Shown here piece by piece: positions 1 to 13,059 of a stretch of DNA of 44,796 nucleotides. Positions within the stretch are counted from its first letter, which is position 1. Each line of letters begins with the position of its first letter. The notes under the pieces are model-generated. The model did no database searches. It saw only the letters and a list, made by a program, of their open reading frames with translations, and was not told where the DNA came from. The translations under genes and the position numbers were made by a program. The stretch is from an uncultured Merdimonas sp. (GTDB lineage Bacteria > Bacillota > Clostridia > Lachnospirales > Lachnospiraceae): NCBI GenBank assembly GCA_944375725.1, contig CALWAZ010000120.1, positions 1 through 44,796 on the forward strand, written 5' to 3'.

Positions 1-116
1 AGATATCCCATTCGAAAGAAGTAAGACCCCTTGAAGACGACAAGGTAGATAGGGCAGAGGTGGAAGTGCGGTAACGCATGGAGCTGACTGTTACTAATAG
101 GTCGAGGGCTTGACCA
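1..116 (+). rRNA. 23S ribosomal RNA, 3' end (partial)
   Basis: The first bases match the conserved 3' end of bacterial 23S rRNA, including the segment that reads ACTAATAGGTCGAGGGCTTG and ends near GACC at 115. Only the last part of the gene lies in the window; the rest is upstream. No 5S rRNA follows, so the 5S gene of this operon must be elsewhere. The exact mature 3' end is uncertain by a few bases. Confidence 0.95.
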
Positions 117-243
117 AGAGCGGAGGAAGCGAAAAGAAGCGCTCCGCAAAGCGTCATAGGATAGAAAGTCTTGGAGAAAATGGATTGACAGTATATAGTT
201 TTGAAGGCACAAGAAAGAAATATCGAATAGAAGTTTTCAGACA

Positions 244-393: not shown

Positions 394-1401
394 ATGAAGA
401 TCGATATGAAAAAATGGGTCCAGGAATGTATTTCCTTACCAAAGAAAAAGGCAATGCCGATTCTGTCTTTTCCGGGAATTCAGCTGACGGGACACAGTGT
501 TGACGAAATGGTTAAGGACGGACACCTGCAGGCAGTCTGCATGGAAGCCATTGCGAAAAAGTTCAACACAGGCGCGGCGTTCAGCCTGATGGACTTATCG
601 GTAGAGGCTGAAGCATTTGGAAGTTCTGTGCATTACAGCGAGGATGAAGTGCCGACTGTAACGGCAGCTCTGGTGCATGACGAGGAAGAAGCAGAGGCTC
701 TGAAGGTTCCGGAGGTCGGCGCAGGCCGTACAGGCGAGTGTGTCAAGGGAATCAAAGAGGTGTCTCAGCTGATCACCGATCGTCCGGTACTTGCCGGAAT
801 CATTGGTCCTTTCTCTCTGGCAGGAAGACTGCTGGATATGACGGAAATCATGATTCTGTGCTTTGATGATCCGGAGATGGTAGAGACGGTTCTGGAGAAG
901 GCGACAGAATTTCTGATTAAATATGCAAAAGCTTTCAAGGAAGCAGGAGCAAACGGCATTGCTATTGCAGAACCGGCTGCCGGACTTTTATCCCCGGGAC
1001 TGATTCAGGAATTTTCCACTCCTTATGTAAAGAAGATTCGTGAAAGTGTAGAAGATGATGACTTTATCATTCTGTATCATAACTGCGGAAGTGTAGTTCC
1101 CCTTCTTGACAATATTAAGGAGATTGGCGCATCCGCATACAGCATAGGAAATGCAGTGGATATTGAAGAAGCATTGAAAGTAATTCCTGAGGACAGTATC
1201 GTAATTGGAAATATTGATCCCGCTGGAACATTCCGGAACGGAACACCGGAGAAGGTACGCAAAGAGACGCTGGAGCTTCTTGAGAGATGCGGAAAGTATC
1301 CGAATTTTGTGATTGCCAGCGGCTGCGATATTCCGCCGATGACACCGATGGAGAATATACAGACATTCTTTGATACAGTGGAAGAGTATTATAACCGGTA
1401 A
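394..1401 (+). CDS. Uroporphyrinogen decarboxylase-fold corrinoid methyltransferase (MtaA/CmuA-like)
   Basis: This 335-residue protein belongs to the UroD superfamily branch that moves methyl groups to or from corrinoid proteins (MtaA, MtbA, CmuA, MtvB type), not the haem-synthesis enzyme. The zinc-ligand pattern HxC...C of that branch is visible as H229-N-C231-G and C311 in an SGCD motif. The start at 394 follows GGAGGAACAGAT. An in-frame upstream extension would run through the rRNA terminator and is rejected. The gene stands alone in front of a minus-strand PocR-AraC regulator. A TATAAT lies at 354-359 without a good -35 box, as expected for activator-dependent transcription. It could serve as methyltransferase I for an unknown methyl donor; coenzyme M as acceptor is unlikely in this kind of organism. 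Family is certain, substrate unknown. Confidence 0.88.
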   Translation: MKIDMKKWVQECISLPKKKAMPILSFPGIQLTGHSVDEMVKDGHLQAVCMEAIAKKFNTGAAFSLMDLSVEAEAFGSSVHYSEDEVPTVTAALVHDEEEAEALKVPEVGAGRTGECVKGIKEVSQLITDRPVLAGIIGPFSLAGRLLDMTEIMILCFDDPEMVETVLEKATEFLIKYAKAFKEAGANGIAIAEPAAGLLSPGLIQEFSTPYVKKIRESVEDDDFIILYHNCGSVVPLLDNIKEIGASAYSIGNAVDIEEALKVIPEDSIVIGNIDPAGTFRNGTPEKVRKETLELLERCGKYPNFVIASGCDIPPMTPMENIQTFFDTVEEYYNR

Positions 1402-1510
1402 AAATCTGTTTTACAGACACAGAAATATTTTGTACATAATAAAGGAAAAAGCCGGCCTGGCAGGGCAGATAAAAAATGCTGCCTGACCGCCTGGCTGGCT
1501 TTCATCTGGG

Positions 1511-2758
1511 CTACCGGAACTGCTTCGGTGTCAGTCCGGTATACTTTTTAAATACCTTTGAAAAATAACTCTGATCTTCAAATCCTACAGCCATCGCGAT
1601 GTCGATGATGGAAAAGTCAGTGTTGGCAAGCAGCCGCTTGCTTTCCTCGATGCGCACCATGTTCAGATATTCTTTGAAAGAAGAACCTGTACAGGTCTTA
1701 AACAGCGTTGAAAAATAGGAAGGATGCAGATGTACATGGCTGGCGACGTCTTCCAGCGTCAGAGGACCATTAAAGTGTTCTGATATGTACAGGATTGCCT
1801 TTTTGGTAATTTCGTGGTTTTTGGAAGGAATGTAATTAAACATGCTTTCCGAAAAGGTTTCCACAATCTCCTGCAGCTTGTAGCAGAGTGTATCTATCGT
1901 GTTAATCTGCTGGAGATTCTGCAGAAACTGATTATTCAGTTTCAGAATGCTGTCTGTAGGTGCGCCGCCTTCAATGGCGGTTCTTGACAGGAGAGAGCAG
2001 AGTTCCAGGGCCCTTGCTTTTACAATATCCAGACTGTTTCCTTCGGAAAAGAATACATATCCGAGGAGATCGTTGAGAATTGCATTGGCTTTCGGAGCAT
2101 CTCCCTGCTTGACTTTACTGAGCAGTTCCTTTTCCTTTTCGTAAGGATAGGGCGGCTTTTCCAGGTTTTCTGCTTTGTAGCGCTGGATGGATTCATTGAT
2201 GCGTGACTGCTGAAGGAGTTTTTGATTATTCTGCCATAGTTCCTTTTTACTTTCAGTTATAAGATTGGAAAAAAGGTAGAACAAAAGATGGCTGATGTGG
2301 TTTACGAGAGAGGCTTCTATCACTGGTATGCCTTCTGTCTCATCATACAGCTCCAGAGCTTTTTCCGTAGTCAGGGGATATCTTTTGGCGATGGTTGATA
2401 TGAGAATAGAGTCCGGCTGATCCATCAGAAAGGGCCCCACAAGAATAGAGCCGAGGAATGTATGCTTGTTGATCAGAGGATATACAATATGGTTCAGTTC
2501 TGCGTGACAGGCAAAAATATAGGGTTCTCCCAGTTCGATTGCTTTCTTGCTGGCAGAGATATGTATTTTTTCGCAGGAGTCTTTGGAGGGAAGATGCTTC
2601 TGAAACAGAGTGCAGAAGCGGGGAGTATCCCCTTCAGAAACAAGGATTTCGCCCTGATCGTTGATGATCTGTATAGGAAGTTTGATACAGGCATGGAAAG
2701 TGAGCGCCATATCTTTCAGAGTCTTTTCAGGTACGATAGTATATAATAGCTGTTTCAA
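1511..2758 (-). CDS. PocR-domain AraC-family transcriptional regulator (first copy)
   Basis: This 415-residue cytoplasmic regulator has an N-terminal PocR ligand-binding domain (about residues 5-165; conserved Cys residues and a CHAEL motif followed by LVGPF). A linker of about 140 residues follows. The C-terminal AraC double helix-turn-helix (about 312-413) ends in the typical YFSKVFKKYTGLTPKQFR. PocR domains are known or proposed to sense small organic molecules. The start is a TTG at 2758 preceded by GGAGAGAGGGC; the second regulator of this block has the same TTG arrangement. It is flanked by a UroD-type methyltransferase and, divergently, by the corrinoid protein gene, so it probably activates the methyl-transfer genes. 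The effector is not known. Confidence 0.88.
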   Translation of the reverse strand: MKQLLYTIVPEKTLKDMALTFHACIKLPIQIINDQGEILVSEGDTPRFCTLFQKHLPSKDSCEKIHISASKKAIELGEPYIFACHAELNHIVYPLINKHTFLGSILVGPFLMDQPDSILISTIAKRYPLTTEKALELYDETEGIPVIEASLVNHISHLLFYLFSNLITESKKELWQNNQKLLQQSRINESIQRYKAENLEKPPYPYEKEKELLSKVKQGDAPKANAILNDLLGYVFFSEGNSLDIVKARALELCSLLSRTAIEGGAPTDSILKLNNQFLQNLQQINTIDTLCYKLQEIVETFSESMFNYIPSKNHEITKKAILYISEHFNGPLTLEDVASHVHLHPSYFSTLFKTCTGSSFKEYLNMVRIEESKRLLANTDFSIIDIAMAVGFEDQSYFSKVFKKYTGLTPKQFR

Positions 2759-2770
2759 AGCCCTCTCTCC

Positions 2771-2875
2771 TTTGGTATGAAATATAAAACTATTGTATCA
2801 CAGTTTTGGCGGTTTTTCACAATAAAATTTGGAAAATAGAAAATTAATACAAATAATCATGAATAATTACCAAAA
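2771..2875. promoter_or_regulatory. Intergenic control region with TACCAAA motifs, PocR-AraC / corrinoid gene
   Basis: Between the divergent regulator and the corrinoid protein gene there are ATACCAAA (minus strand, 2771-2778), TTACCAAA (2867-2874) and a related AATACAAA (2846-2853) placed 21 bp before the latter. Roughly 21-23 bp spacing of direct repeats is typical of AraC-family sites. A TATAAT-like -10 follows around 2894-2899 with no good -35, which fits an activated promoter. Assignment as the PocR-AraC binding site is inference. Confidence 0.4.
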
Positions 2876-2939
2876 CAAAAAACGGGTTTTTACTATAATA
2901 ATAAGCAAATAAAACGGAATACATATGGAGGGTGTAATT

Positions 2940-3590
2940 ATGGATCTTATTCAGGAAATTTCAGAGTATCTGCAGAAGGGACGCGCGAAAAACGTTAAGC
3001 AGCTGGTTCAGCAGGCGCTGGATGAAAACATGGACCCGAAGGCAATTTTGAATGACGGCCTTCTGTCTGGTATGATGATTATTGGCGCAAAGTTCAAGAA
3101 CAATGAAGTGTTTGTTCCGGAGGTTCTTGTTGCAGCGAGAGCAATGAACGTAGGCTTAAGCGTATTGGAGCCCAAGCTGATTGAGGTTGGAAACGAGCCT
3201 GTTGGAAAAGCGGTTATTGGAACAGTTCAGGGCGATCTTCATGATATTGGAAAGAATCTGGTTGTTATGATGCTCAAAGGAGCAGGTTTCGAAATTTACG
3301 ATCTGGGCGTGGATGTTGAGACTTCTGTATTTATCGACAAGGCTGAGGAAGTGGGAGCAGATATCATCTGTATGTCCGCGCTTCTGACAACGACTATGCC
3401 GAAGATGCAGGACTGCATTGATATGCTGAAGGAGAGAGGCCTTCGTGATAAGTACATCGTTATGATTGGCGGAGCTCCTGTAAATGAAAGCTTCTGTGAG
3501 CAGATTGGCGCTGACTATTATACTCCTGATGCGGCTTCCTGTGCAGAGGTGGCAAAGAAAGTTGTGCTGGAAAAGAAGGCAGCTAACTAA
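2940..3590 (+). CDS. Corrinoid (B12-binding) methyltransferase protein, MtaC/MtbC/MtvC type
   Basis: This 216-residue protein carries the methyl group on cobalt between methyltransferases I and II. Residues 1-85 form the helical cap domain. Residues 88-216 form the Rossmann-like cobalamin domain with the base-off binding motif DxHxxG (D99, H101, G104), where H101 ligates cobalt, plus the later GG segment IGGAPV. The length matches the family (about 210-220). The start at 2940 follows GGAGGG; an in-frame ATG 15 nt upstream at 2925 overlaps that ribosome binding site and is less likely. It lies next to the corrinoid activator and shares the block with two candidate MT1 proteins and one MT2. Its methyl donor cannot be read from sequence. 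Confidence 0.95.
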   Translation: MDLIQEISEYLQKGRAKNVKQLVQQALDENMDPKAILNDGLLSGMMIIGAKFKNNEVFVPEVLVAARAMNVGLSVLEPKLIEVGNEPVGKAVIGTVQGDLHDIGKNLVVMMLKGAGFEIYDLGVDVETSVFIDKAEEVGADIICMSALLTTTMPKMQDCIDMLKERGLRDKYIVMIGGAPVNESFCEQIGADYYTPDAASCAEVAKKVVLEKKAAN

Positions 3591-3755
3591 TTGTAAAAGG
3601 CAGACGGAAATTTGAAATGTAGAAAAGGAAACCAGTGAAAATCTGGTACAGGCTTACCCCTACTGTAAGCAGGGACGAAGAATCAAAAAACCATTGTCCG
3701 GCAGGATGAGAAGGGATTCTTAGGATGAACTGTGAGTCAGGATACTTTTACAATA
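3590..3755 (+). promoter_or_regulatory. Cobalamin riboswitch
   Basis: The sequence after the corrinoid gene has the conserved cobalamin riboswitch elements in order: CCAGTGAAAATCTGG, then CTACTGTAAGC, then GGATGAACTGTGAGTCAGGA with the B12 box AGTCAGGATAC at 3735-3745. A perfect 10-bp closing stem P1 is formed by 3590-3599 and 3746-3755; its 5' strand starts on the last base of the upstream stop codon. It lies directly upstream of the corrinoid activator gene. When cobalamin is bound it would be expected to lower expression of that gene. Confidence 0.9.
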
Positions 3756-3757
3756 AG

Positions 3758-3883
3758 GCAGTCTATCTTGGGTGGGAGACAGACTGCAAAAAAGAACAGG
3801 GATGTATGATATGTAAACTCTTTTGGATAAAAGGGTTTTCTTTCTTTATAAAGAAAAATACAGGACATATCATGGGTTAGGAG
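3758..3883 (+). promoter_or_regulatory. Likely expression platform of the cobalamin riboswitch
   Basis: Downstream of the aptamer are a 7-bp hairpin (3758-3764 with 3781-3787) and a 9-bp perfect inverted repeat, ATGATATGT at 3806-3814 and ACATATCAT at 3865-3873. The latter ends a few bases before the AGGAGG ribosome binding site (from 3879). No T-run follows either stem, so control by access to the ribosome is more plausible than termination. The pairing was found by eye and no folding was computed. Confidence 0.45.
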
Positions 3884-3891
3884 GCGGTGGA

Positions 3892-6045
3892 GTGAAGAGA
3901 ACGGAGTTTGATATAAAGATTTCCATTGAGGATGTCTGCAGATTTCTGGATATTCATAAAAAGAGTGACTCTTATGAGGAACTGCTGGAGGAATTGAAGG
4001 AAATGCTTCCCATGGCGTATGAAAAGATTGAGCCCATGGCACTTCTGGAATTTGGCAGTCTGGATGGCTATACGGTAGAAGAGGAAGGCAGACCGATAAA
4101 GGAAGCGCTGTTTGGCATTTGTACAGTGGGAAAACGGATGGCGGAATGGTCTACTCAGCTGTTTGCAGAAGGAGACTATATGCGTGGAATGATGGCGGAT
4201 GCCATTGCGGATAATTATCTCTTTCAGATGGATACGGCAATGGAGCAGACCGTAATAGACATGTGCCGGAAGCAGGGGAAGGGAATTATAAGGCGTATAG
4301 AAGCGCCCCAGGATATTCCCATGAGCATACAGAAGCGGGCGTATGATGCAACCGGGGCGGAGCAGGAAGGAATCGGAATTAAGCCGAGCTTTATGTACGA
4401 TCCGGTAAAAACAGTCTGCCAGATTTATCTTCTGGATGATGACACCAGCCGTTATCATCCGGAACACGACTGCAGCAGATGCAGCAATCTGACCTGCAGA
4501 AACCGCAGAATCCCATCTGTTCAGGTAAAGGTGCGCACTGGAGAAGAAGAGAGGCGGATACGCGCGCGAAAATCTGAAAGCCTTCTTGAAACATTCCAAA
4601 AAAAGGATATTTTTCTGACGGCAGTCTGCGCGGGAAGGGGAACCTGCGGGAAATGCAGGGTGCAGTTTCTGGAAGGCGCAACGGAACCGGATGAAGCGGA
4701 CAGAAAGGTTTTTACAGAGAAAGAACTGGAGCAGGGCTGGAGGCTGGCCTGCCGCGCATATCCGAAGCAGGACTGCACGGTTCTGCTGGACAATGCAGAG
4801 ACAGATTTTTTTGTGCTTGCGGATACAAAGGACGGAAACGAAAGAAGAATATCTGATGGGACGTCTTATGGAATTGCGGTAGATATCGGAACCACAACCA
4901 TTGCCATGCAGCTGGTGGATTTGTCGGATGGAAGGACGGCAGATGTCTATACGGCAATCAACAGGCAGAGGGCTTATGGAGCGGATGTTATCAGCAGGAT
5001 AGAAGCGTCGAACAGCGGAAAAAAAGAAGAACTGAGAAGCAGCATCCGGCAGGACCTTTTAAAAGGAATTGGAAAGCTGACAGAAGATAACCGGCTGAAG
5101 ATAAGCAAAATGGTTATCGGGGCAAATACGACCATGGTGCATCTGCTCATGGGTTATTCCTGCGAGACACTGGGAGTCTATCCGTTTGAACCGGTCAATA
5201 TCGATATGATTCACATCCCTTACCGGGAACTGCTGGAAGATGAGAGGCAGGACTGCCCGGTGACGATATATCCGGGAATCTCCACGTATGTGGGAGGAGA
5301 TATCGTGTCGGGGCTGTATACCCTGGAGTTCGCGAAAAGGGAAAAACCTGCGGTTTTGATTGACCTTGGAACAAATGGGGAAATGGCAGTGGGATGCAGA
5401 GACGGAATTCTTACTGCATCTACGGCAGCAGGACCGGCTTTTGAAGGCGGAAATATTACCTGTGGAACAGGAAGTATCCCGGGAGCGATCTGCGGCGCGG
5501 TATATCGGAATGGAAAGATGGAGACGGAAACCATCAATCATGCAAAACCATCGGGAATCTGCGGCACAGGTATTATTGATGTCATTTATGAACTGAAGAA
5601 GGCAGAAATCATAGATGAGACGGGGCGGATGGAAGAACCGTATTTTAAAGACGGTGTTCTTCTTTCTGAAGAAGGAAATCTGCGTTTTTATCAGAAGGAT
5701 GTCAGAGAAATACAGCTGGCGAAGGCTGCGGTGCGGGCCGGATTGGAAACGCTGGCAGCCAGATATGGAATCAGCTGTGAAGATGTCGACCGGTTTTATA
5801 TTGCAGGAGGATTTGGGTACAAAATGAACATCCATAAGGCAGTAGATATCGGCCTTCTTCCGGCACAGTGTGAGGGCAGGACGGAAGCAGTAGGAAACAG
5901 CTGCCTGCAGGGAAGTGTCAAGTATCTTCTGGATCCTGACGCGGAGAAAGAGACGGAAGAGCTCCGGAAAATGGCCAGAGAGCTGCCACTGTCGAATGAT
6001 AAGATGTTTCAGGAATTGTATATGGAATATATGTATTTTGAGTAG
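3892..6045 (+). CDS. Reductive activator of corrinoid proteins (RamA/RACo-like, DUF4445) with MetH-activation-like N-terminus
   Basis: This 717-residue protein is expected to re-reduce inactive Co(II) corrinoid protein to Co(I) at the expense of ATP. Residues 1 to about 190 resemble the AdoMet-binding activation domain of B12-dependent methionine synthase. A CxxCx4C cluster (C194, C197, C202) follows. Residues about 208-300 form a [2Fe-2S] ferredoxin domain with C246, C252, C255 and C287. Residues about 326-717 form the ASKHA-type ATPase domain opening with DIGTTT. The start is a GTG at 3892 right after AGGAGGCGG; longer in-frame versions lack a ribosome binding site. The gene is preceded by a cobalamin riboswitch and the corrinoid protein gene, which supports the role strongly. 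Confidence 0.9.
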   Translation: MKRTEFDIKISIEDVCRFLDIHKKSDSYEELLEELKEMLPMAYEKIEPMALLEFGSLDGYTVEEEGRPIKEALFGICTVGKRMAEWSTQLFAEGDYMRGMMADAIADNYLFQMDTAMEQTVIDMCRKQGKGIIRRIEAPQDIPMSIQKRAYDATGAEQEGIGIKPSFMYDPVKTVCQIYLLDDDTSRYHPEHDCSRCSNLTCRNRRIPSVQVKVRTGEEERRIRARKSESLLETFQKKDIFLTAVCAGRGTCGKCRVQFLEGATEPDEADRKVFTEKELEQGWRLACRAYPKQDCTVLLDNAETDFFVLADTKDGNERRISDGTSYGIAVDIGTTTIAMQLVDLSDGRTADVYTAINRQRAYGADVISRIEASNSGKKEELRSSIRQDLLKGIGKLTEDNRLKISKMVIGANTTMVHLLMGYSCETLGVYPFEPVNIDMIHIPYRELLEDERQDCPVTIYPGISTYVGGDIVSGLYTLEFAKREKPAVLIDLGTNGEMAVGCRDGILTASTAAGPAFEGGNITCGTGSIPGAICGAVYRNGKMETETINHAKPSGICGTGIIDVIYELKKAEIIDETGRMEEPYFKDGVLLSEEGNLRFYQKDVREIQLAKAAVRAGLETLAARYGISCEDVDRFYIAGGFGYKMNIHKAVDIGLLPAQCEGRTEAVGNSCLQGSVKYLLDPDAEKETEELRKMARELPLSNDKMFQELYMEYMYFE

Positions 6046-6046
6046 C

Positions 6047-6111
6047 GGCACAAAAAAGGGGACAGCAGACTCTGAATTTGAAATTCGGTCTGCTGTCCCC
6101 TTTTTTGTGCC
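6047..6111. terminator. Bidirectional intrinsic terminator
   Basis: Two perfectly complementary 24-nt arms (6047-6070 and 6088-6111) contain A6 and T6 tracts and enclose a loop with an inner GAATTTGAAATTC palindrome. It lies between the convergent ends of the corrinoid activator and the second PocR-AraC regulator and would stop transcription from both sides. Confidence 0.92.
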
Positions 6112-6136
6112 GGATCCGATTTCGGGCGTTGAAGCT

Positions 6137-7036
6137 TTAACTTCGGTATTGCTTAGGAGTCAGTCCTGTGTATTTTTTAAACACTTTAGTGAAATAGCTC
6201 TGATCTTCAAAGCCGATAGAGAGGGCGATGTCAAGAATAGAGCTGTCTGTGGTGGTAAGAAGCTTTTTACTCTTTTCGATGCGGATATAATTCAGGTATT
6301 CTTTGAAGGAAGAACCGCAGGACTGTTTGAAGAGCGTAGAAAAATAGGAAGGATTCAGCTCCACATAGTCGGCGGTTTCTTTCAAGGTAATAGGACTGTC
6401 AAAGTGCTGCTGCATATAGGTAATAGCACTTTGTATTACATCTGTTCCCTTTCCGGAATCAGTGGCTGCCGTTTCTCTGCTTCCATTTTGAGGTGCTTCC
6501 TGTGGGACAGAGGCGTTTGAGGAGAGGAAAGGTAAAAAGATATAGGAAATAAGCCAGCTGCATTGTTCAGCCTTTTCTGGCGTAATCAGAGGAATATGTT
6601 TTGCCTTTTCATATAGTTCAAGCAAATCCCTGGCTTCTGGAGAATACCGTTTTGCAATATCAACAAACATATCCGGGCTGGGTTCTTCTGTAACAAATGG
6701 GCCTACAAGGATGGAACCAAGCTGCTGGCGGCCGCTGTTCAGCGGAAAAATCAGATGACTGAGATTGGCATGGCAGGAAAAGATAAAGGGATTTCCGGAT
6801 TTCATCGCGCGTCTTCCGGCATCTGCGTGAAGCTTATGGCAGGGGTCTTCTCCGCCGGAATACCGGGGAAGGATTTTCTGAAAGCAGATGCAGAAAGGAA
6901 GGGGTGTGCCGAATCCGCAGATGACTTCTCCGTTTTCATCTAAGGCGGAAACCGGAAGCTCCAGACAGCAGTGAAGACATTTCAGTAGTTTTTCAAGTTG
7001 GTCTTTCTGAATATAGGTATATAATACAGGCTTCAA
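6137..7036 (-). CDS. PocR-domain AraC-family transcriptional regulator (second copy)
   Basis: This 299-residue paralogue of the regulator at 1511-2758 has a PocR domain (about residues 3-165; FCICFQ, CHANLSHL and LVGPF motifs) and a C-terminal AraC DNA-binding domain (about 197-298, ending in TGLTPKQYRS). It lacks most of the central linker of the first copy. A TTG at 7036 is chosen as start because it follows CGGAGAAAATGC and aligns with the TTG start of the paralogue. A longer in-frame TTG at 7111 has no ribosome binding site and lies inside the promoter. It probably controls genes of the methyl-transfer block; two TTTGGTAA repeats at its own promoter suggest autoregulation. Confidence 0.87.
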   Translation of the reverse strand: MKPVLYTYIQKDQLEKLLKCLHCCLELPVSALDENGEVICGFGTPLPFCICFQKILPRYSGGEDPCHKLHADAGRRAMKSGNPFIFSCHANLSHLIFPLNSGRQQLGSILVGPFVTEEPSPDMFVDIAKRYSPEARDLLELYEKAKHIPLITPEKAEQCSWLISYIFLPFLSSNASVPQEAPQNGSRETAATDSGKGTDVIQSAITYMQQHFDSPITLKETADYVELNPSYFSTLFKQSCGSSFKEYLNYIRIEKSKKLLTTTDSSILDIALSIGFEDQSYFTKVFKKYTGLTPKQYRS

Positions 7037-7052
7037 AGCATTTTCTCCGAGA

Positions 7053-7111
7053 TTTGGTAAAAATATAAGATAATCTTTGGTAATAATATCATTTTTAAAA
7101 AATGAAATCAA
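7053..7111 (-). promoter_or_regulatory. Promoter and repeat operator of the second PocR-AraC gene
   Basis: On the minus strand TTGATT (7106-7111) and TATTAT (7083-7088) are 17 bp apart. Two exact copies of TTACCAAA (read as TTTGGTAA on the plus strand at 7053-7060 and 7076-7083) lie 23 bp apart, touching the -10 box and the transcript start. Direct repeats at that spacing suit an AraC-type dimer. Their downstream position suggests repression or autoregulation. Binding is inferred. Confidence 0.5.
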
Positions 7112-7193
7112 GACATTGACACAAAATATTTACACATATGAAAATATTTTATGTGGATAAAACAGGAATGTGTTGATTTAAAAACACAGAATA

Positions 7194-7222
7194 TTGAAGA
7201 AGATTCTGAAAAATGTTATAAT
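7194..7222 (+). promoter_or_regulatory. Promoter of the SorC-family regulator gene
   Basis: TTGAAG (7194-7199) and TATAAT (7217-7222) are separated by 17 bp, a good sigma-A promoter, about 50 bp ahead of the ATG at 7272. Confidence 0.6.
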
Positions 7223-7271
7223 CTTTTTTATTAAGACAGGCAGAAGTTGACTGCCGGAAAAAGAGGATATT

Positions 7272-8228
7272 ATGACAATTGATAACCAGGACGAACTGAT
7301 AATGCAGGCTGCACGCATGTACTACCAGGAGGATATGACGCAGGCGGAGATTGCCAAAGAACTTTTTCTATCCAGGACAAAAGTTTCCCGTCTGCTTAAG
7401 ATGGCTAAGGAACAAAGAAAAGTTGAAATCCGTATCTGTGACGGAGCTCAGAGAAATACTTTTCTGGAAAGACTGTATAAAGAGCGGTTCGGGCTGAAAG
7501 AGGCGCTTATTCTGGCTGATAGTTCGGAAAAAGAAGTCTTTTTGTCGGTGGCAAGGCTGGCTGCGCAGTATACAGATTCCATCTTGACGGAAAATTCTAT
7601 TGTAGGGATCGGAAGGGGACGGACGCTGCGGGCGGTTGTGGAATGTATGCAGCCCCGGGAAAAGCTGCCAATCCAGGTCGTCCAGCTGATTGGTTTGATG
7701 AATAATCCCTCCCAAAATGAGGAAGAAATGGAACTGGTACGGAAATTTGCCGGAATGTACGGAGGAACCTGCCATAATCTTTTTGCGCCCTTTGTCCTTG
7801 AGGACAGCGAGGCGAGACAGGTATTGAACAGGGTGGCCGCTGTGGGTAAAACGATTGAGCTGGCCAAAAAGGCAGATGTCATTCTGTGCTCTGTAGGGAA
7901 ATTTGATCTGCAGGATAAGAGCATTCTGTGGAATTCTTATCTGGAGCAGGAGGAAAAACTTCATCTGAAAAAAATGGGCTCTGTAGGTCTGTTCTGCGGG
8001 CGGTATTACGACATTAACGGGAAAATGGCGGACACGGAGCTGCACGATAAGATCTTCGGATTGGAAATGGAAGAGATTGTCGCCAGGGAGCATGTGATCT
8101 GCGTGGCGCAGGGAGAAGAAAAGGTGCTGCCGATTCTGGGCGCGCTTCATGGTAAGCTGTTTAATACTCTGATTACGGATGAACGGACGGCTATGAATGT
8201 ATTGATCCGGGGAGGAGAGATGATTTAA
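7272..8228 (+). CDS. SorC/DeoR-type sugar-phosphate-responsive transcriptional regulator
   Basis: This 318-residue protein has an N-terminal helix-turn-helix (about residues 12-48; MTQAEIAKELFLSRTKVSRL) followed by the SorC sugar-binding domain (about 58-316), which is related to sugar-phosphate isomerases. Family members sense phosphorylated sugars and control sugar uptake operons. The length is typical (310-320). The start follows an AGAGGA ribosome binding site. It lies just upstream of and in the same direction as the PTS genes, so it likely controls the operon 8544-12959. The effector would then be the phosphorylated product of that PTS. The family call is firm; the effector is inference. 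Confidence 0.88.
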   Translation: MTIDNQDELIMQAARMYYQEDMTQAEIAKELFLSRTKVSRLLKMAKEQRKVEIRICDGAQRNTFLERLYKERFGLKEALILADSSEKEVFLSVARLAAQYTDSILTENSIVGIGRGRTLRAVVECMQPREKLPIQVVQLIGLMNNPSQNEEEMELVRKFAGMYGGTCHNLFAPFVLEDSEARQVLNRVAAVGKTIELAKKADVILCSVGKFDLQDKSILWNSYLEQEEKLHLKKMGSVGLFCGRYYDINGKMADTELHDKIFGLEMEEIVAREHVICVAQGEEKVLPILGALHGKLFNTLITDERTAMNVLIRGGEMI

Positions 8229-8543
8229 TCCCAGAACGAAAAGCTGAAAAATATTTCAGAAAGTGAAAATTTGTGCACAGTGGGAACAGATGTGATAAGT
8301 GAAGAAAAATGAAAAAATATCCAAAAAAAATACAATTCTCCAAAAAAAATCAGAACAAATGGCGAAAAATGTTGCTATCATAAAAATGAATTAAAGGTAA
8401 TTTGACATAACACACTGCAGTCTGTGCGGGAACGGGTCAAAAGTACCTGGCGGCAAGAATGAAACCCTGGAAAGCGGGCGCGCAGTTTTCCGGGTATCAG
8501 ATAAAGAAAAGAACAACCATTTAAGAGAGAGAAGGAGAAGATT
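8229..8543 (+). promoter_or_regulatory. Intergenic region ahead of the PTS operon
   Basis: This 315-bp gap holds no gene. The first half is very A/T rich. The second half could fold into an imperfect hairpin (about 8464-8496) not followed by a T-run. No convincing -35/-10 pair stands out, which would fit a promoter needing an activator such as the adjacent SorC protein. The ribosome binding site AGAAGGAGAAG of the next gene is at its end. No operator could be identified with confidence. Confidence 0.4.
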
Positions 8544-9896
8544 ATGAGTTATATCCTTGATTTACTGTTGAATCAGATCTTCACGCAGCCGTTCCTGCTG
8601 TTGGCGATCGTAGTATTTATCGGTTATGTTGCTATGAAGCAGACCGTATCCAAAGCCTTAATCGGAGCTTTTAAAGCTTCCATCGGAATTATTGTAATGG
8701 GTATCGGTTCCAGCGCTCTGTCTACCAATTTCGGCCACCTGTTGACGGCCCTCAGAAATGCTACCGGCCTTCAGGGAGCAGGACTGAACACCTATTCTAC
8801 CATGACTGCCGGTTTCGAGAAAATGGATGCGGTACTGGGAGAAGGAGTTGGAACTACCTGGGGCTTGTACACACTGCTGGTTGCATTCATTTTTAACCTG
8901 ATTCTGGTAGCTCTGCGGAAATGGACGAAGATTCGTGCGGTGTACCTGACAGGAAATGCAATGATTGTACAGTGCGGCATTACCGTTTACATAGTATGGC
9001 GTTTCCTGGGAACAGGCATGATTCCCACAATTCTGATTTCTGCTGTTCTGACAGCGCTTTACTGGGGAATTTTCTCTACCCTGCTGATTAAGCCTGCCAA
9101 GGTGATTACCGGCGGCGCGGATCTGACAGTTGCCCATCAGCAGATGTTTATGGACTTTGTGGCGTACAAGGTTGCTCCGAAGATCGGTGATCCTCAGAAA
9201 GATGATATTGAGAAAAAGAAATTGCCGTCTTCCCTGAATTTCCTGCAGGACAGCATTCTGGCCACCCTGCTGTGTATGATTATTGCTACTGCGGTAATTA
9301 TGCTGGTAATCGGCGGCGATGGTATCGATGCTCTGAGAGGAGCTGACGGCTTCAACCAGGCTGCTTACAAGAACACCATTATCTTCATGCTCTGGATTGC
9401 AATTACACTGACTGCAGACCTTTGGGTACTGCTTGCAGGTGTACGTATGTTTGTAGGTGAACTGATGATGTCCTTCAAAGGAATTTCCGAGAAGCTTCTG
9501 CCCGGTGCAGTGGCAGGTGTAGACTGTGCGGCTCTTTATGGATTTGCACCGAAATCTGTAGTGCTTGGTTTCCTCTGTGGTGCTTTAGGACAGATTGTGG
9601 GCGTCATTATCCTGATTGTGACAGGAAGTCCTATTGTTTTGATTCCGAGCTTCATTCCGCTGTTCTTCGACGGAGCTACGGTAGGTATCTTTGCGAATAA
9701 GTTCGGCGGCTGGAAAGCCCTGGTGGTTCTGTGCTTCTGCACCGGATTGATTCAGATTTTCGGTTCTGCTCTTGCAGTTGCCATGCTGGATTTGACCTGG
9801 TGGCAGGGTGTCAGCGACTATGCTACAATCTGGGTAGCGATTACTGCAGTTCTCAAGGGAATCGGAGCTTTGCTGGGAATCCCTGTTGCTGGCTGA
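8544..9896 (+). CDS. PTS permease IIC component, UlaA (SgaT) family
   Basis: This 450-residue polytopic membrane protein has about ten hydrophobic segments. It resembles the ascorbate permease UlaA along its length: the HQQ motif followed by the VAYKVAP segment, the GVRMFVGEL segment, the PGAVAGVDCAALYGFAP segment, and the IPSFIPLFFDGATVGIFAN segment are all counterparts of UlaA sequence. It would form the channel for a sugar or sugar acid, with phosphoryl transfer by the IIB protein encoded 81 bp downstream. No IIA gene is present here. Its place in an operon with methyltransferases suggests a substrate other than ascorbate, perhaps a methylated sugar-like compound; that part is inference. 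Confidence 0.9.
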   Translation: MSYILDLLLNQIFTQPFLLLAIVVFIGYVAMKQTVSKALIGAFKASIGIIVMGIGSSALSTNFGHLLTALRNATGLQGAGLNTYSTMTAGFEKMDAVLGEGVGTTWGLYTLLVAFIFNLILVALRKWTKIRAVYLTGNAMIVQCGITVYIVWRFLGTGMIPTILISAVLTALYWGIFSTLLIKPAKVITGGADLTVAHQQMFMDFVAYKVAPKIGDPQKDDIEKKKLPSSLNFLQDSILATLLCMIIATAVIMLVIGGDGIDALRGADGFNQAAYKNTIIFMLWIAITLTADLWVLLAGVRMFVGELMMSFKGISEKLLPGAVAGVDCAALYGFAPKSVVLGFLCGALGQIVGVIILIVTGSPIVLIPSFIPLFFDGATVGIFANKFGGWKALVVLCFCTGLIQIFGSALAVAMLDLTWWQGVSDYATIWVAITAVLKGIGALLGIPVAG

Positions 9897-9977
9897 AACA
9901 TCTGAAAAAGAGTTGGATTTTGCTTGAAACAGAAGTATTGTAGAAACAGGTTTAATATTGAAAGGAGAACGGATAAA

Positions 9978-10274
9978 ATGTTAAATATTGTGTGTGTATG
10001 CCATAATGGTATGGGAACAAGTATGCTGCTGAAGATCAATGTAAATAACATCTGCATGGAGAACGGAATCAGTGCAAGCGTAGAGGCGTGCTCCCACGGA
10101 GAAGCAGCAGGTTTCCTGATGAACGCTGATATCGTACTTACCAGCCCGGAAATCGTGGAGATGCTTCCGCCCACAGACGCAGTAATTCTTCAGACTACCA
10201 ATATGCTGGATAAGGCTACTGTAACTGAACTGCTGGTAAATTGTGTGAAAGAGCATTTCCCCAATGAAATGTGA
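9978..10274 (+). CDS. PTS IIB component (ascorbate/SgaB-like)
   Basis: This 98-residue cytoplasmic phosphocarrier has the phosphorylation loop CHNGMGTS near the N-terminus (C8 is the expected phospho-cysteine). The length fits stand-alone IIB proteins of the lactose/ascorbate type. The start at 9978 follows AAAGGAG; a longer in-frame version has no ribosome binding site. It pairs with the IIC gene upstream and overlaps the next gene by 4 bp (GTGA). Confidence 0.9.
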   Translation: MLNIVCVCHNGMGTSMLLKINVNNICMENGISASVEACSHGEAAGFLMNADIVLTSPEIVEMLPPTDAVILQTTNMLDKATVTELLVNCVKEHFPNEM

Positions 10275-10762
10275 CAACAGGATTTTCTAAAATGATAATA
10301 CTCAATTATCTAATCAGTGCGGCAGCTCTGGCTGTCCTGGTTTATGAGACCTATCTGGTGATCCGGCGGAACCGCCGGATCACCGTAAAGGGTAAGGATG
10401 ATTTTTTTACCTTTTGTCTGGTGCTGCTGTTTGCAGCTTTGATTTTCCGTCCGGATCCGATGGCTGATTTTCTGGTCAGTCTGCGAAACACGCTGATTCT
10501 TATGGCAGTTTTTTTTACTCTTGCTGTCCGGCGTGGAATCTGCGAACAAGGCGTAGTGAAGCTGGGCTTTGTGATTCCCTGGGAAAAAATTCAGACGGTT
10601 CAGGTGGCTAAATATCAGACATCCAAGGTTGTGGTGGTATTTGCGACGGAGAAGAGACGTTATCGGTTATTTTTCCAGCAGTGCAGGCTGAGAGAGCTGA
10701 TTTATGAGCTGCAGAAGTATGTTCCGGAGGTTTTGATAGAAGAATCTCTGAAACTGAACTGA
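10271..10762 (+). CDS. Small membrane protein with PH-like C-terminus (DUF5673-like), unknown function
   Basis: This 163-residue protein has three hydrophobic segments (about residues 9-30, 45-61 and 71-86), followed by a soluble beta-rich part that opens with RRGICEQGVVKLGFVIPWEKI. This resembles membrane-anchored PH-like domains of Firmicutes. The suggested start is a GTG overlapping the IIB stop codon; an ATG at 10292 is an alternative. Tight coupling to the PTS genes and co-direction with the downstream methyltransferases suggest co-expression. No function can be assigned. Confidence 0.7.
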   Translation: MTTGFSKMIILNYLISAAALAVLVYETYLVIRRNRRITVKGKDDFFTFCLVLLFAALIFRPDPMADFLVSLRNTLILMAVFFTLAVRRGICEQGVVKLGFVIPWEKIQTVQVAKYQTSKVVVVFATEKRRYRLFFQQCRLRELIYELQKYVPEVLIEESLKLN

Positions 10763-10781
10763 GACCAGTTAACAAAGACTG

Positions 10782-10829
10782 TCCGGGACCTGTCCCGGAT
10801 GGGAAGAATGCCTCTGCTTCAGGCAGAGG
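10782..10829 (+). promoter_or_regulatory. Two short hairpins ahead of the second methyltransferase gene
   Basis: CCGGGACCTGTCCCGG is a self-complementary element at about 10782-10797, and a second stem (CCTCTGC with GCAGAGG, about 10810-10829) follows. Neither has a T-run, so they are more likely RNA-processing or stability elements than terminators. The role is not known. Confidence 0.35.
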
Positions 10830-10846
10830 AGAGAGGAAACAGGAAT

Positions 10847-11875
10847 ATGACCAGTTATGAAATTATGAAGGCCAATATCCATTTTCAGAATCCTGATCGA
10901 ATCGGACTGCGGTTTGACAGGATTGCCGGAAAGGGAGATGTGTGCCGTATTTTTGTACTTCCCCCGAAGGATAAGCGGGATAACAGCAAGACCTACAGCG
11001 TTTCCAAAAAAGTACGTCCCAAAGATAAGGAATACGATGAGTGGGGATGCCTCTGGAGAAGTGATGGAAAAGAAGCCAATATGGGTGAGCCCTGCAATAT
11101 CGTTCTGGAGGATTTGGAAGAGGATCTGGAAACCTATGAATTCCCTGATCCGAAAGCGGAAGGACGCTTTGATGGTCTGGAGGAAGCGCTGAAAGCTGCT
11201 GAAGAGAAGAATCTTTATGTACAGCTTAACAGCCCGCAGTGTATTTTTGAGCGTATGCATTTCCTGCATGGCTTTGAGAATACCCTCTGCGATATTCTGA
11301 TGCTGCCGGATGAGACAGCAGAGTTTGCTAAAAAGCTGGCAGATTACCAGATCGGAATTATTGAAGAAGCGTATCGTCTTGGAAAAGGACGAATCCACTG
11401 CTATGATACGACAGATGACTGGGGTACTCAGCAGGCGCTGATGATTCCGCCGAATTCATTCCGGGAGATCTTCAAGCCCCAGTATAAGCGTGTGTTTGAT
11501 AAAGCGCATGAGTGCGGCATGGATATCCGCTTCCATACAGATGGAAAAATCAATGATATTCTGGAGGATCTGATTGAGCTGGGCGTGGATATCATCAATA
11601 TTCATCAGCCGAATCTGGTAGGCATTGATGAGGTGTCCAAGATTGCACAGGGCCGTATTTGTTTCGAGGCTTCTGTAGATATTCAGGATACACTTCCGAC
11701 AGGAGACAGGGATAAGATTGAGAAAGAAGCAAAAGAGCTGATAGAGAAGTGGGGAACAAGAAAAGGCGGCTTTATCGGCGTGGAATACGGTTACCTGGAC
11801 GCTATCGGTATTACGAAGGAGACAATGCTTTTCGAACTGGAATGCTTTGAAAAGTATGGTACCTATAAGAAATAA
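10847..11875 (+). CDS. Uroporphyrinogen decarboxylase-fold methyltransferase (second, divergent type)
   Basis: This 342-residue member of the UroD superfamily is only distantly similar to the protein at 394-1401. The position equivalent to HxC holds H230-T-D232-G, and no Cys follows at the C-terminal site (the local sequence is GFIGVEYGYLDAIG), so metal or substrate binding must differ from the MtaA type. The start at 10847 follows GAGAGGAAACAGGA. It lies between the PTS genes and the methyl-THF methyltransferase, with only 10 bp to the latter. By context it is the methyltransferase I that demethylates the imported substrate; the substrate is unknown. Confidence 0.85.
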   Translation: MTSYEIMKANIHFQNPDRIGLRFDRIAGKGDVCRIFVLPPKDKRDNSKTYSVSKKVRPKDKEYDEWGCLWRSDGKEANMGEPCNIVLEDLEEDLETYEFPDPKAEGRFDGLEEALKAAEEKNLYVQLNSPQCIFERMHFLHGFENTLCDILMLPDETAEFAKKLADYQIGIIEEAYRLGKGRIHCYDTTDDWGTQQALMIPPNSFREIFKPQYKRVFDKAHECGMDIRFHTDGKINDILEDLIELGVDIINIHQPNLVGIDEVSKIAQGRICFEASVDIQDTLPTGDRDKIEKEAKELIEKWGTRKGGFIGVEYGYLDAIGITKETMLFELECFEKYGTYKK

Positions 11876-11885
11876 CAGGTGCGGC

Positions 11886-12959
11886 ATGATTGTTGTTGGA
11901 GAGAAGATCAATGGGAGTATTCCTGCCGCGGCCAGAGCGGTTGCAGAGCGGGATGCGGAGTGGATTCGTGATATGGCCCGCAGACAGGCGGAGGCCGGAG
12001 CGGACTTCATTGATGTATGTGCTTCAGTGGAATTTGAGGAGCCAGAGACGCTTCGCTGGATGATTGAAACAATTCAGAGCGTCACTGATGTCCCCATTTC
12101 CATTGACAGCCCAAGCACGGAGACACTGGCACAGGTTTATAAATCCTGCAGAAGCCCCGGACTTTTTAATTCTGTATCCATGGAAAAAAAGAAGGAGATC
12201 GACAGGATCTTCAGGATTATGAAAGAAAATCCGGGATGGGAAGTGATTGCCCTGCTCAGCGGTGATGATGGGATTCCCAAATGTGCTGCTGACAGGCTCA
12301 GAGTGTTTGAGGACATAATGGGAAAAGCAAAAGAGTATGGAATCGCTCCGTCAAGGATTCATATTGATCCGATCGTGGAAGCGGAAGCCTATATTGATCC
12401 GGAACAGGAAGACGGTCCAGGAATCTCCGTTGTCACAAAGGTGGCTGACGAAATCCGGGCAAGGTATCCTGTGCTCCATATTACTTCTGCCATCAGCAAT
12501 ATTTCACATGGACTGCCGGCGCGGAAATATATGAATTACAGCTTTGCAGTGCTGATGCTGGCACATGGCCTGGACTGCGGTATTCTGGACCCGCTCAGCC
12601 ACGGCATTCTTGACGTTGTAAACGCAGCGGAAAAACTGCTGGCTCTTCCGGAGAGCGCGCAGCAGGAACTGGCAGTTTCTGTACAGAAAAATGGACCGGA
12701 AAGCTGCAGCCTTCCGCTTTCGGACAGAGGCGTTTTCGAAAGAGAAGGACGGAAATATGCAGAAATGGCGGCTGTAGTCCTTGCGATGAAGCGGCTGGGA
12801 GCTGGCGTGGAGGCTATGAATCTGGGTACCGTGGACAGTGATATCCTGGGAGCTGCCTATGCGGCAGCTGCACTGCTGGGCCTGGAAGAGGAAGGCAGCT
12901 GTGTCGAGTATGTTGACGCGTATAAGTCTGGCCTTTTTGGAAGAACGGAAAAGAAATAA
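11886..12959 (+). CDS. Methyltetrahydrofolate:corrinoid methyltransferase (MT2), pterin-binding family
   Basis: This 357-residue protein has a DHPS/MeTr-type pterin-binding TIM barrel. It opens with VVGEKINGS, and contains EAGADFIDV and PISIDSPSTETL, as in AcsE, MtvA and the MetH folate domain. It would transfer the methyl group from the corrinoid protein to tetrahydrofolate, feeding the methyl branch of the Wood-Ljungdahl pathway. The classical family is about 260-280 residues; about 90 extra residues at the C-terminus (from about 270) contain a conserved-looking alanine-rich helix pair of unknown role. The start at 11886 is preceded by ACAGGTG, a moderate ribosome binding site. It is the last gene of the operon and a strong terminator follows. 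Confidence 0.88.
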   Translation: MIVVGEKINGSIPAAARAVAERDAEWIRDMARRQAEAGADFIDVCASVEFEEPETLRWMIETIQSVTDVPISIDSPSTETLAQVYKSCRSPGLFNSVSMEKKKEIDRIFRIMKENPGWEVIALLSGDDGIPKCAADRLRVFEDIMGKAKEYGIAPSRIHIDPIVEAEAYIDPEQEDGPGISVVTKVADEIRARYPVLHITSAISNISHGLPARKYMNYSFAVLMLAHGLDCGILDPLSHGILDVVNAAEKLLALPESAQQELAVSVQKNGPESCSLPLSDRGVFEREGRKYAEMAAVVLAMKRLGAGVEAMNLGTVDSDILGAAYAAAALLGLEEEGSCVEYVDAYKSGLFGRTEKK

Positions 12960-12980: not shown

Positions 12981-13033
12981 GGGGCGGCCCTCGGATTTCG
13001 AAAAATTTTCGAAATCCAGGGACCGCCCCTTTT
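12981..13033 (+). terminator. Intrinsic terminator after the methyl-transfer operon
   Basis: A long stem with arms about 12981-13003 and 13007-13029 contains complementary GGGGCGG and CCGCCCC ends and an inner GGATTTCGAAAA/TTTTCGAAATCC. It is followed by TTTT. It separates the operon from the convergent CPBP gene. Confidence 0.88.
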
Positions 13034-13059
13034 GGTCTGCTTTTTCAGAATAGTTCCAT

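What the first reader, a model, noticed from the sequence alone, without database searches (positions are those of the whole stretch)
394..12959. Corrinoid demethylase system joined to a PTS permease and a SorC regulator
The block encodes every known part of a corrinoid methyl-transfer system (two UroD-fold methyltransferases, corrinoid protein, methyl-THF methyltransferase, reductive activator) plus an UlaA-type PTS IIC, a IIB and a SorC-type regulator. The second MT1 and the MT2 are in the same operon as the PTS genes. Known O-demethylase clusters for aromatic ethers, methanol or betaines use other transporters or none. The simplest reading is uptake and phosphorylation of an O-methylated sugar, sugar acid or polyol, followed by demethylation into the Wood-Ljungdahl pathway. 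That would be a distinct carbon and methyl source. Linkage is seen; substrate is inferred.
Basis: partly seen in the sequence, partly recalled or inferred. Interest (0 to 1): 0.85.

Follow-up and report, generated by a model that had tools for sequence, protein, structure and literature searches.

The report
Vitamin-C-like PTS with B12 demethylase
A gut bacterium carries an ascorbate-type sugar transporter in one operon with a probable vitamin B12-dependent demethylase, and relatives carry the same pair inside vitamin C degradation operons, so it may strip the methyl group from methylated vitamin C (a known product of animal metabolism) and use the rest as food.

Summary
The genes are present as described, plus two PocR-AraC regulators, a cobalamin riboswitch and a small membrane protein. 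The conserved unit is narrower than the block: an UlaA-type IIC, its IIB and the HxD UroD protein (UroD2), together in 18 of 20 related loci; both exceptions are contigs under 5 kb. In 9 of 20 loci UroD2 lies with UlaG, the ascorbate-6-phosphate lactonase; in the window's genome ula genes lie on other contigs. All 18 full-length UroD2-linked IICs examined change UlaA's ascorbate contacts H135, Q139 and M410 and keep most others; 14 of 16 IICs beside UlaG keep all three. UroD2 folds like the corrinoid methyltransferase MtaA and has a carboxylate-type metal site. Best reading: PTS uptake of O-methyl-L-ascorbate (2-O-methylascorbate is a COMT product), corrinoid demethylation, then the ascorbate pathway. 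Substrate and activity are inferred. Against the full picture: MeTr is linked in only 4 of 20 loci and found free-standing in only 9 of 23 genomes, so the methyl acceptor must differ elsewhere. UroD1 has a His-Cys-Cys site and is probably not a second ether demethylase. Wood-Ljungdahl entry was not tested.

The parts
394..1401 (+). UroD1: MtaA-like UroD-fold methyltransferase with His-Cys...Cys ligands (HNC, GCD); probably S/Se- or thiol-directed
   Evidence: Pfam PF01208 6.4e-63; mtaA_cmuA subfamily below cut-off; motif in alignment
1511..2758 (-). PocR-AraC regulator 1
   Evidence: PF10114 + PF00165
2940..3590 (+). corrinoid protein (CP), DxHxxG motif
   Evidence: PF02310 + PF02607; MtgC/pyl_corrinoid-like, below NCBIfam cut-offs
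3579..3764 (+). cobalamin riboswitch upstream of RACo
   Evidence: RF00174 62.2 bits, gathering 31.5
3823..6045 (+). RACo/RACE reductive activator of corrinoid protein (ORF from TTG 3823; the true start may lie near 3892)
   Evidence: PF14574, PF17651, PF00111
6137..7111 (-). PocR-AraC regulator 2
   Evidence: PF10114 + PF00165
7272..8228 (+). SorC-family regulator
   Evidence: PF04198 4.1e-63; DeoR(Bac)/LsrR models below cut-off
8544..9896 (+). mIIC: UlaA-type PTS permease with H135N, I136A, Q139V, M410V relative to E. coli UlaA
   Evidence: PF03611 1.3e-88; 4rp8 4.8e-87; pocket residues
9978..10274 (+). UlaB-like PTS IIB with P-loop Cys
   Evidence: PF02302; UlaB model below cut-off
10271..10762 (+). 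small membrane protein (DUF5673-like), homologue in 15 of 20 related loci
   Evidence: sub-threshold; synteny
10847..11875 (+). UroD2: UroD-fold protein with H-T-D...E-Y-G-Y site; candidate MT1 (demethylase)
   Evidence: PF01208; AF2 pLDDT 93; best PDB match MtaA 4ay7 E 1.9e-11; motif
11886..12959 (+). MeTr: methyl-H4folate:corrinoid protein methyltransferase (MT2)
   Evidence: NF005719 256.8 bits, cut-off 259; PF00809
12960..13059 (+). GC-rich hairpin and T-run after MeTr, probable end of the operon
   Evidence: sequence printed; one search lists a smaller hairpin at 13020-13038

Best explanation
The IIC-IIB-(DUF)-UroD2-MeTr operon is an ascorbate-type PTS joined to a corrinoid O-demethylase. 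The modified UlaA-type IIC and IIB, probably served by the IIA of an ordinary ula operon, take up an O-methylated L-ascorbate, most likely 2-O-methyl-L-ascorbate, and phosphorylate it at C6. UroD2 binds the methoxy oxygen at a His/Asp/(Glu) metal site and moves the methyl group to Co(I) of the corrinoid protein; RACo keeps the cobalt reduced; MeTr passes the methyl group to tetrahydrofolate. The demethylated L-ascorbate-6-phosphate goes through UlaG, a decarboxylation step and UlaE/UlaF to D-xylulose 5-phosphate. Shown here: the genes, the conserved linkage, the co-occurrence with ula genes and the corrinoid protein, the altered pocket residues and the predicted fold. Inferred: the substrate, phosphorylation at C6, the order of steps, the demethylase activity, the IIA partner and the methyl acceptor.
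For: IIC and IIB with UroD2 in 18 of 20 related loci, exceptions being two contigs under 5 kb. UlaG with UroD2 in 9 of 20 loci, several also with IIA, UlaE, UlaF, EI and HPr; UlaG over the NCBIfam cut-off in 19 of 22 UroD2 genomes. In a Lachnospiraceae sample UlaG occurs in 28 of 299 genomes but in 5 of 5 with a UroD2 orthologue. In the window's genome ula genes lie on contigs C46 and C106 and the block has no IIA. An IIC of 73% identity or more to the window's occurs in 4 of 299 genomes, all four beside UroD2; the next best match is 39%. All 18 full-length UroD2-linked IICs have N135, V139 and S/V410 while keeping T86, Y87, H194, Q195, R288, D314, I358 and F362; 14 of 16 full-length IICs beside UlaG with no UroD2 in the same locus keep H135, Q139 and M410 (residues from PMC6048161). 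UroD2 is closest to MtaA in fold and has carboxylates where S-methyltransferases have Cys (rule from PMC10418091). A CP match at E <= 1e-100 is in 5 of 5 UroD2 genomes, 26 of 299 overall, and 3 of 23 UlaG genomes without UroD2. O-methylascorbate is a real COMT product found in human blood (PMC3475673 passages).
Against: No activity or substrate data. Stand-alone MeTr in only 9 of 23 UroD2 genomes, so methyl-H4folate cannot be the general acceptor. Corrinoid genes adjoin UroD2 in only 6 of 20 loci; no CP (E <= 1e-25) in G318, only a MetH-length match in G310 and only contig-edge pieces in G311. The CP contrast depends on a cut-off chosen after seeing the data: at about 1e-55 it is 5 of 5 against 8 of 23. 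Three IIC-GAT proteins with neither UroD2 nor UlaG in the stretch seen (L212, L222, L224) also have N135 with A or S at 139, though with N195 and M410, so part of the signature is not unique to the UroD2-linked IICs. UroD2 homologues of about 52% in Tct-type clusters have HSCG, not HTDG, so the metal site varies among ascorbate-linked members. Which ascorbate atoms H135, Q139 and M410 touch was not established. No IIA was seen in the window's own genome fragments (contig break). No source of free O-methylascorbate in the gut lumen was shown.
Confidence: 0.52

Rival explanations
1. Same machine, other substrate: the PTS imports a different O-methylated sugar acid, lactone or polyol (for example a methyl ether of an aldonate, uronate or inositol), UroD2 demethylates it, and the product only later joins the ula pathway.
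For: The IIC pocket differs from UlaA at three contacts, and UlaG is not seen with UroD2 in the window or in 11 of 20 loci, several on short contigs. HAD phosphatase and creatininase-family genes in some clusters are unexplained.
Against: UlaG, the ascorbate-6-phosphate lactonase, is in 9 of 20 of the clusters and in 19 of 22 genomes; most ascorbate-contacting residues are kept.
Confidence: 0.24
2. UroD2 is not a methyltransferase but an ascorbate-pathway enzyme, for example a decarboxylase that replaces the missing UlaD.
For: UlaD was not detected in the ula clusters, and in 16 of 22 distinct UroD2 genomes the only OMP-decarboxylase-family match was one PyrF-like match; the UroD fold is named for a decarboxylase.
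Against: UlaG loci of genomes without UroD2 also lack a detected UlaD and hold the propeller protein c11 (21 of 24 loci). UroD2 lies in a same-strand run with MeTr, CP or RACo in L019, L021, L022, L023, L035 and the window, and beside CP and RACo in L027. Its fold is closer to MtaA than to HemE. It co-occurs with a particular CP.
Confidence: 0.12
3. Thiol or selenol chemistry: the block, through UroD1 with its His-Cys-Cys site, handles methyl-sulfur or methyl-selenium compounds, and the PTS neighbours belong to a separate function.
For: UroD1 ligands match the S/Se rule of PMC10418091; many UroD2 genomes lack a stand-alone MeTr, as that paper describes for type 1 mlp clusters in some species.
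Against: A UroD1 of 58% identity or more is beside UroD2 only in the window, L023 and L035; UroD2 lacks the Cys ligands; IIC-IIB-UroD2 is conserved without UroD1.
Confidence: 0.08
4. The PTS genes and the methyltransferase genes are unrelated neighbours.
For: CP-RACo and IIC-MeTr appear to be separate transcription units.
Against: 18 of 20 loci keep IIC-IIB-UroD2 together, and a second family has a 57% UroD2 homologue beside IIA-IIB-IIC (L236).
Confidence: 0.03

Closest known systems
Corrinoid O-demethylase systems (MT1, corrinoid protein, RACE activator, MeTr) of acetogens and gut Clostridia
   Same: Same four protein types; UroD-fold MT1 with carboxylate-type metal ligands; in the window an H4folate methyltransferase gene in the operon
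   Different: Joined to an ascorbate-type PTS IIC/IIB and a SorC regulator, and in relatives to ula catabolic genes; by inference acts on an enol ether of a sugar lactone and not on an aromatic ether
L-ascorbate (ula) operon with PTS UlaABC, UlaG, UlaE, UlaF
   Same: UlaA-type IIC, UlaB-type IIB; in relatives IIA, UlaG, UlaE, UlaF in the same cluster
   Different: IIC pocket changed at 135, 139 and 410; extra UroD2; ula enzymes not in the window's cluster; UlaD not detected in these organisms' ula clusters
Type 1 mlp gene clusters (Kountz and Balskus, PMC10418091)
   Same: UroD1-CP-RACo resembles part of one; His-Cys-Cys site
   Different: Only one HCC-type UroD protein; such clusters are defined by at least an Mlp2 and an Mlp3; UroD2 is not HCC
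MtaA, methylcobalamin:coenzyme M methyltransferase (4ay7)
   Same: Closest solved fold to UroD2 and the only PDB sequence hit, a weak one (E 0.011)
   Different: About 18% identity; UroD2 has His-Asp and no Cys at the metal site

Membership tests
corrinoid O-demethylase system | UroD-fold MT1 with O-type (carboxylate) metal ligands | tested here: met
   H-T-D and E-Y-G-Y in window UroD2 and its PTS-linked orthologues, H-S-D in L038; ligand rule from PMC10418091; geometry not measured
corrinoid O-demethylase system | cobalamin-binding corrinoid protein | tested here: met
   PF02310 + PF02607
corrinoid O-demethylase system | ATP-dependent reductive activator (RACE/RamA) | tested here: met
   PF14574, PF17651, PF00111
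corrinoid O-demethylase system | MeTr for H4folate encoded with the system | tested here: inconclusive
   Met in the window (NF005719, just under cut-off); linked in 4 of 20 relatives; stand-alone MeTr in 9 of 23 genomes
corrinoid O-demethylase system | methyl transfer from an ether to cob(I)alamin | not testable with these tools
   needs an enzyme assay
ascorbate (ula) PTS | UlaA-type IIC | tested here: met
   4rp8/4rp9 E 4.8e-87
ascorbate (ula) PTS | UlaA ascorbate-binding residues | tested here: not met
   H135N, I136A, Q139V, M410V; the other residues listed by PMC6048161 are kept
ascorbate (ula) PTS | UlaG lactonase in the cluster | tested here: not met
   not in the block; on contig C46 of the same genome; with UroD2 in 9 of 20 relatives
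type 1 mlp gene cluster | at least one Mlp2 and one Mlp3, His-Cys-Cys | tested here: not met
   only UroD1 has His-Cys-Cys; UroD2 lacks both Cys. No tree with named Mlps was made

The most novel reading that the evidence does not exclude
A gut bacterial module that undoes the host's COMT methylation of vitamin C: a dedicated PTS imports 2-O-methyl-L-ascorbate as its 6-phosphate, a B12-dependent UroD-fold demethylase removes the methyl group into one-carbon metabolism, and the ascorbate-6-phosphate feeds the ula pathway; in lineages without MeTr the methyl group goes to another acceptor, possibly a thiol through a UroD1-type enzyme as the L035 cluster suggests.
Probability: 0.4. Interest if true: 0.88.

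Novelty: new variant of a known kind. Interest (0 to 1): 0.74.

Why it matters
If true, corrinoid demethylation reaches beyond aromatic ethers, methanol and betaines to a methylated sugar lactone taken up by a PTS. It would link a known human metabolite (O-methylascorbate, tied to COMT variation) to gut bacteria, and give a directly testable function to an orphan UroD protein present in cultured species such as Faecalicatena orotica and Lachnoclostridium sp. An138 (records). It also suggests that the UlaA pocket can be read to predict related PTS substrates.

Tried and rejected
Considered and rejected or lowered: (1) UroD2 as replacement for UlaD: UlaG loci of genomes without UroD2 also lack a detected UlaD and hold the propeller protein c11. 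(2) The whole 394-12959 block as one conserved unit: only IIC-IIB-UroD2 is widely conserved; UroD1 and MeTr are lineage-limited. (3) A type 1 mlp cluster: only one HCC protein. (4) Chance neighbours: refuted by 18 of 20 loci.

Limits: UlaD absence in the 24 UlaG loci rests on tblastn with two OMP-decarboxylase-family proteins, which is not very sensitive; for the 25 handles (22 distinct genomes, three reached twice) it rests on the PF00215 profile. [quoted passage not shown] The family samples are drawn from a larger group. The 5 UroD2 genomes of the family sample come from 4 genera; in three of them UlaG is on the same contig stretch as UroD2, so UlaG co-occurrence is not independent there. 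The UroD2 orthologue call (50% identity or more) leaves out the weaker hits (28-40% identity in G051, G179, G204, G214, G253). In one search I counted matches of 40% identity or more as stand-alone MeTr; G316 (32%, 386-residue frame) and the second hits of 28-29% in G299, G302 and G303 were not counted. In one search duplicates were removed; three partial IICs (L034, L037, L125) were not counted; of 16 full-length IICs beside UlaG the exceptions are L131 (N135) and L188 (T136, C139, N195, N410); several of the 16 come from genomes that have UroD2 elsewhere; seven other IIC-GAT rows (L068, L134, L209, L210, L212, L222, L224) were in neither class, and three of them (L212, L222, L224) also have N135 with A or S at 139.

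Literature (open-licence PMC only): one search found no paper with four of six terms for this combination; in the listings (20 of 143 shown; 5 of 4,782 shown; 12 of 22 shown; 1 of 1) I saw no report of corrinoid demethylation of ascorbate or of a PTS-linked corrinoid demethylase; (20 of 56 shown) listed O-methylascorbate papers on human or animal metabolites, coffee and chemistry. Listings are partial, so prior work cannot be excluded. Papers: PMC10418091 abstract and the Results section; PMC3475673, PMC11322087, PMC3219644 and PMC6048161 passages only; all others search listings only. Wood-Ljungdahl genes were not searched.
Full report
What is there. The window (G000:C120, in a genome of 3.0 Mb and 214 contigs) carries UroD1, a corrinoid protein, a cobalamin riboswitch, a RACo activator, two PocR-AraC regulators, a SorC regulator, an UlaA-type IIC, an UlaB-type IIB, a small membrane protein, a second UroD protein (UroD2) and a MeTr. 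IIC to MeTr run in one direction with gaps of 81 bases, an overlap, 84 and 10 bases, and are followed by a GC-rich hairpin with a T-run. No IIA was found in the block.

What is conserved. A scan of genome contigs with UroD2 gave 20 close relatives (59-97% identity) and one distant hit (L039, 26%) that I left out. In 18 of the 20 an IIC and IIB gene lie with UroD2; L019 and L031 are contigs of 4.8 and 4.1 kb without room to judge. MeTr is linked in L019, L021, L022 and L023, and any of CP, RACo or MeTr in 6 of 20 (those four plus L027 and L035). In the window's genus UroD2 is in 5 of 16 genomes, so it is an accessory trait. In 299 genomes of the family an IIC of 73% identity or more was found in 4, all four beside UroD2; the next best IIC was 39%.

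Where it sits elsewhere. In 9 of 20 loci UroD2 is in a stretch with UlaG (L024-L026, L028, L029, L031, L032, L035, L036), and several of these also have IIA, UlaE, UlaF, a DeoR regulator, HPr and enzyme I. UlaG of L025 scores 602 bits against a cut-off of 306 and matches the solved E. coli UlaG at 2.9e-165. UlaG is in 19 of 22 genomes with UroD2; the three without are G299, G310 and G317. In the genomes of L020-L023 and L027 (G300-G303, G307) a separate ordinary ula operon with UlaG, IIA, IIC (about 34-35% identical to mIIC), UlaE, UlaF and c11 exists; in the window's genome UlaG ends contig C46 and IIC (partial), c11, UlaE and UlaF are on C106, with no IIA seen. A genome of another family, G426, has a 57% UroD2 homologue between HPr/enzyme I and IIA-IIB-IIC (L236) and a 52% one in a stretch with TctC, UlaF, UlaG and c11 (L235). 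The 52% homologue of G253 (L070) lies with TctA, transketolase halves, UlaF, UlaG and a c11 homologue.

Co-occurrence. In the 299-genome family sample UroD2 orthologues (50% identity or more) are in 5 and UlaG in 28; all 5 have UlaG (chance 5e-6, or 5e-5 counting genera). In three of the five the genes are in one stretch, so this is partly the linkage again. A CP match at E <= 1e-100 is in 26 of 299 and in 5 of 5 with UroD2 (3e-6; genera 4e-5), although in G179, G214 and G253 it lies on another contig. Among UlaG genomes without UroD2 it is in 3 of 23 (5 of 5 against 3 of 23: 6e-4; genera 0.002). At a looser cut-off of about 1e-55 I count 8 of 23, so the contrast weakens; the cut-off was set after seeing the data. 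This favours UroD2 working with a corrinoid protein over a plain ula enzyme.

The IIC pocket. PMC6048161 (passages) lists the UlaA residues that contact ascorbate. Mapped onto 18 full-length UroD2-linked IICs (16 of the 18 loci, the window, and L236), all have T86, Y87, N135, A/V136, V139, H194, Q195, R288, D314, I358, F362 and S or V410. Of 16 full-length IICs beside UlaG with no UroD2 in the same locus, 14 read P, Y, H, V, Q, H, Q, R, D, V, F, M (the same paper reports P86 in the Pasteurella UlaA); L131 differs at 135 and L188 at four sites. Seven other IIC-GAT proteins in neither class vary; three of them (L212, L222, L224) also have N135 with A or S at 139, but with N195 and M410. So the UroD2-linked IIC keeps the scaffold of the ascorbate site and changes three contacts to smaller or less polar residues. 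That is what a methylated ascorbate would ask for, but which atoms these residues touch was not established here.

UroD2 and UroD1. The AlphaFold2 model of UroD2 (pLDDT 93) matches MtaA best (4ay7, E 1.9e-11), then HemE structures. UroD2 has H-T-D-G and E-Y-G-Y and lacks both Cys ligands; UroD1 has H-N-C-G and G-C-D. PMC10418091 (Results section) states that His-Cys-Cys marks S-methyltransferases of this fold and favours sulfur or selenium, and that carboxylate or other replacements are found in O-methyltransferases. By that rule UroD2 is O-type and UroD1 is S/Se-type. The Tct-linked homologues (L070, L227) have HSCG, which weakens the link between the motif and an ascorbate substrate.

Methyl fate. 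A stand-alone MeTr homologue (40% identity or more) was found in 9 of 23 genomes with UroD2; the others gave weaker, mostly MetH-length matches, or none (G307, G311, G313, G314). In the window's lineage MeTr is in the operon and H4folate is the likely acceptor. In L035, whose genome showed no stand-alone MeTr, UlaG, UroD1, CP, DUF1638, RACo, IIA, IIC, IIB, UroD2, c11, UlaF and UlaE follow each other on one strand, so a thiol acceptor through UroD1 is a reasonable guess. This is inference.

Why O-methylascorbate. COMT methylates ascorbate; [quoted passage not shown] also PMC11322087 passages). The C2 oxygen belongs to an enediol, so its anion is a far better leaving group than a sugar alkoxide and resembles the phenolates released by known O-demethylases (chemistry recalled, no call). 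Several of the records are gut MAGs or gut isolates by their titles, while others come from other sources such as digesters (recalled); the presence of O-methylascorbate in gut contents was not shown.

Side finding. UlaG loci of 23 Lachnospiraceae genomes without UroD2 hold a 350-residue protein without a Pfam hit (c11) in 21 of 24 stretches, and no UlaD was detected there. Its model is an all-beta propeller whose nearest enzyme in the PDB list is aldos-2-ulose dehydratase. It may replace UlaD. PMC3219644 (passages) reports ulaABCDEF in all genomes it examined, so this may hold only for part of the Clostridia.

Verdict. Substrate and activity remain to be shown.

Noticed in passing
L025:16534-17583; L123, L125, L166-L187: UlaG loci of Lachnospiraceae genomes without UroD2 carry a 350-aa propeller protein (c11, no Pfam hit, nearest PDB enzyme aldos-2-ulose dehydratase) in 21 of 24 stretches, with no UlaD detected; [quoted passage not shown]
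   Followed up: partly
L070:6088-7146 and L235:8340-9365: UroD2 homologues (about 52%) with HSCG instead of HTDG sit with Tct-type transporter genes, UlaF, UlaG and c11 homologues: possibly a second, PTS-free version.
   Followed up: partly
L035:2398-13608: One same-strand run joins UlaG, UroD1, CP, DUF1638, RACo, IIA, IIC, IIB, UroD2, c11, UlaF and UlaE in a genome where no stand-alone MeTr was found; suggests a thiol acceptor for the methyl group.
   Followed up: no
L241:6002-10488 (G000:C91): A second corrinoid methyltransferase cluster in the window's genome: UroD-fold protein, pterin-binding MeTr-like protein, CP and RACo in a row.
   Followed up: partly
window 6046-6136: A long near-perfect palindrome between RACo and PocR 2, probably a bidirectional terminator.
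   Followed up: no
window 10271-10762: Small membrane protein of unknown role with homologues in 15 of 20 UroD2 loci, in varying positions.
   Followed up: no
L020, L022, L024-L026, L028, L029, L032, L033, L036, L038: Creatininase-family and/or HAD phosphatase genes recur near UroD2; role unknown.
   Followed up: no
window 1-117: End of a 23S rRNA gene at the window's left edge.
   Followed up: no
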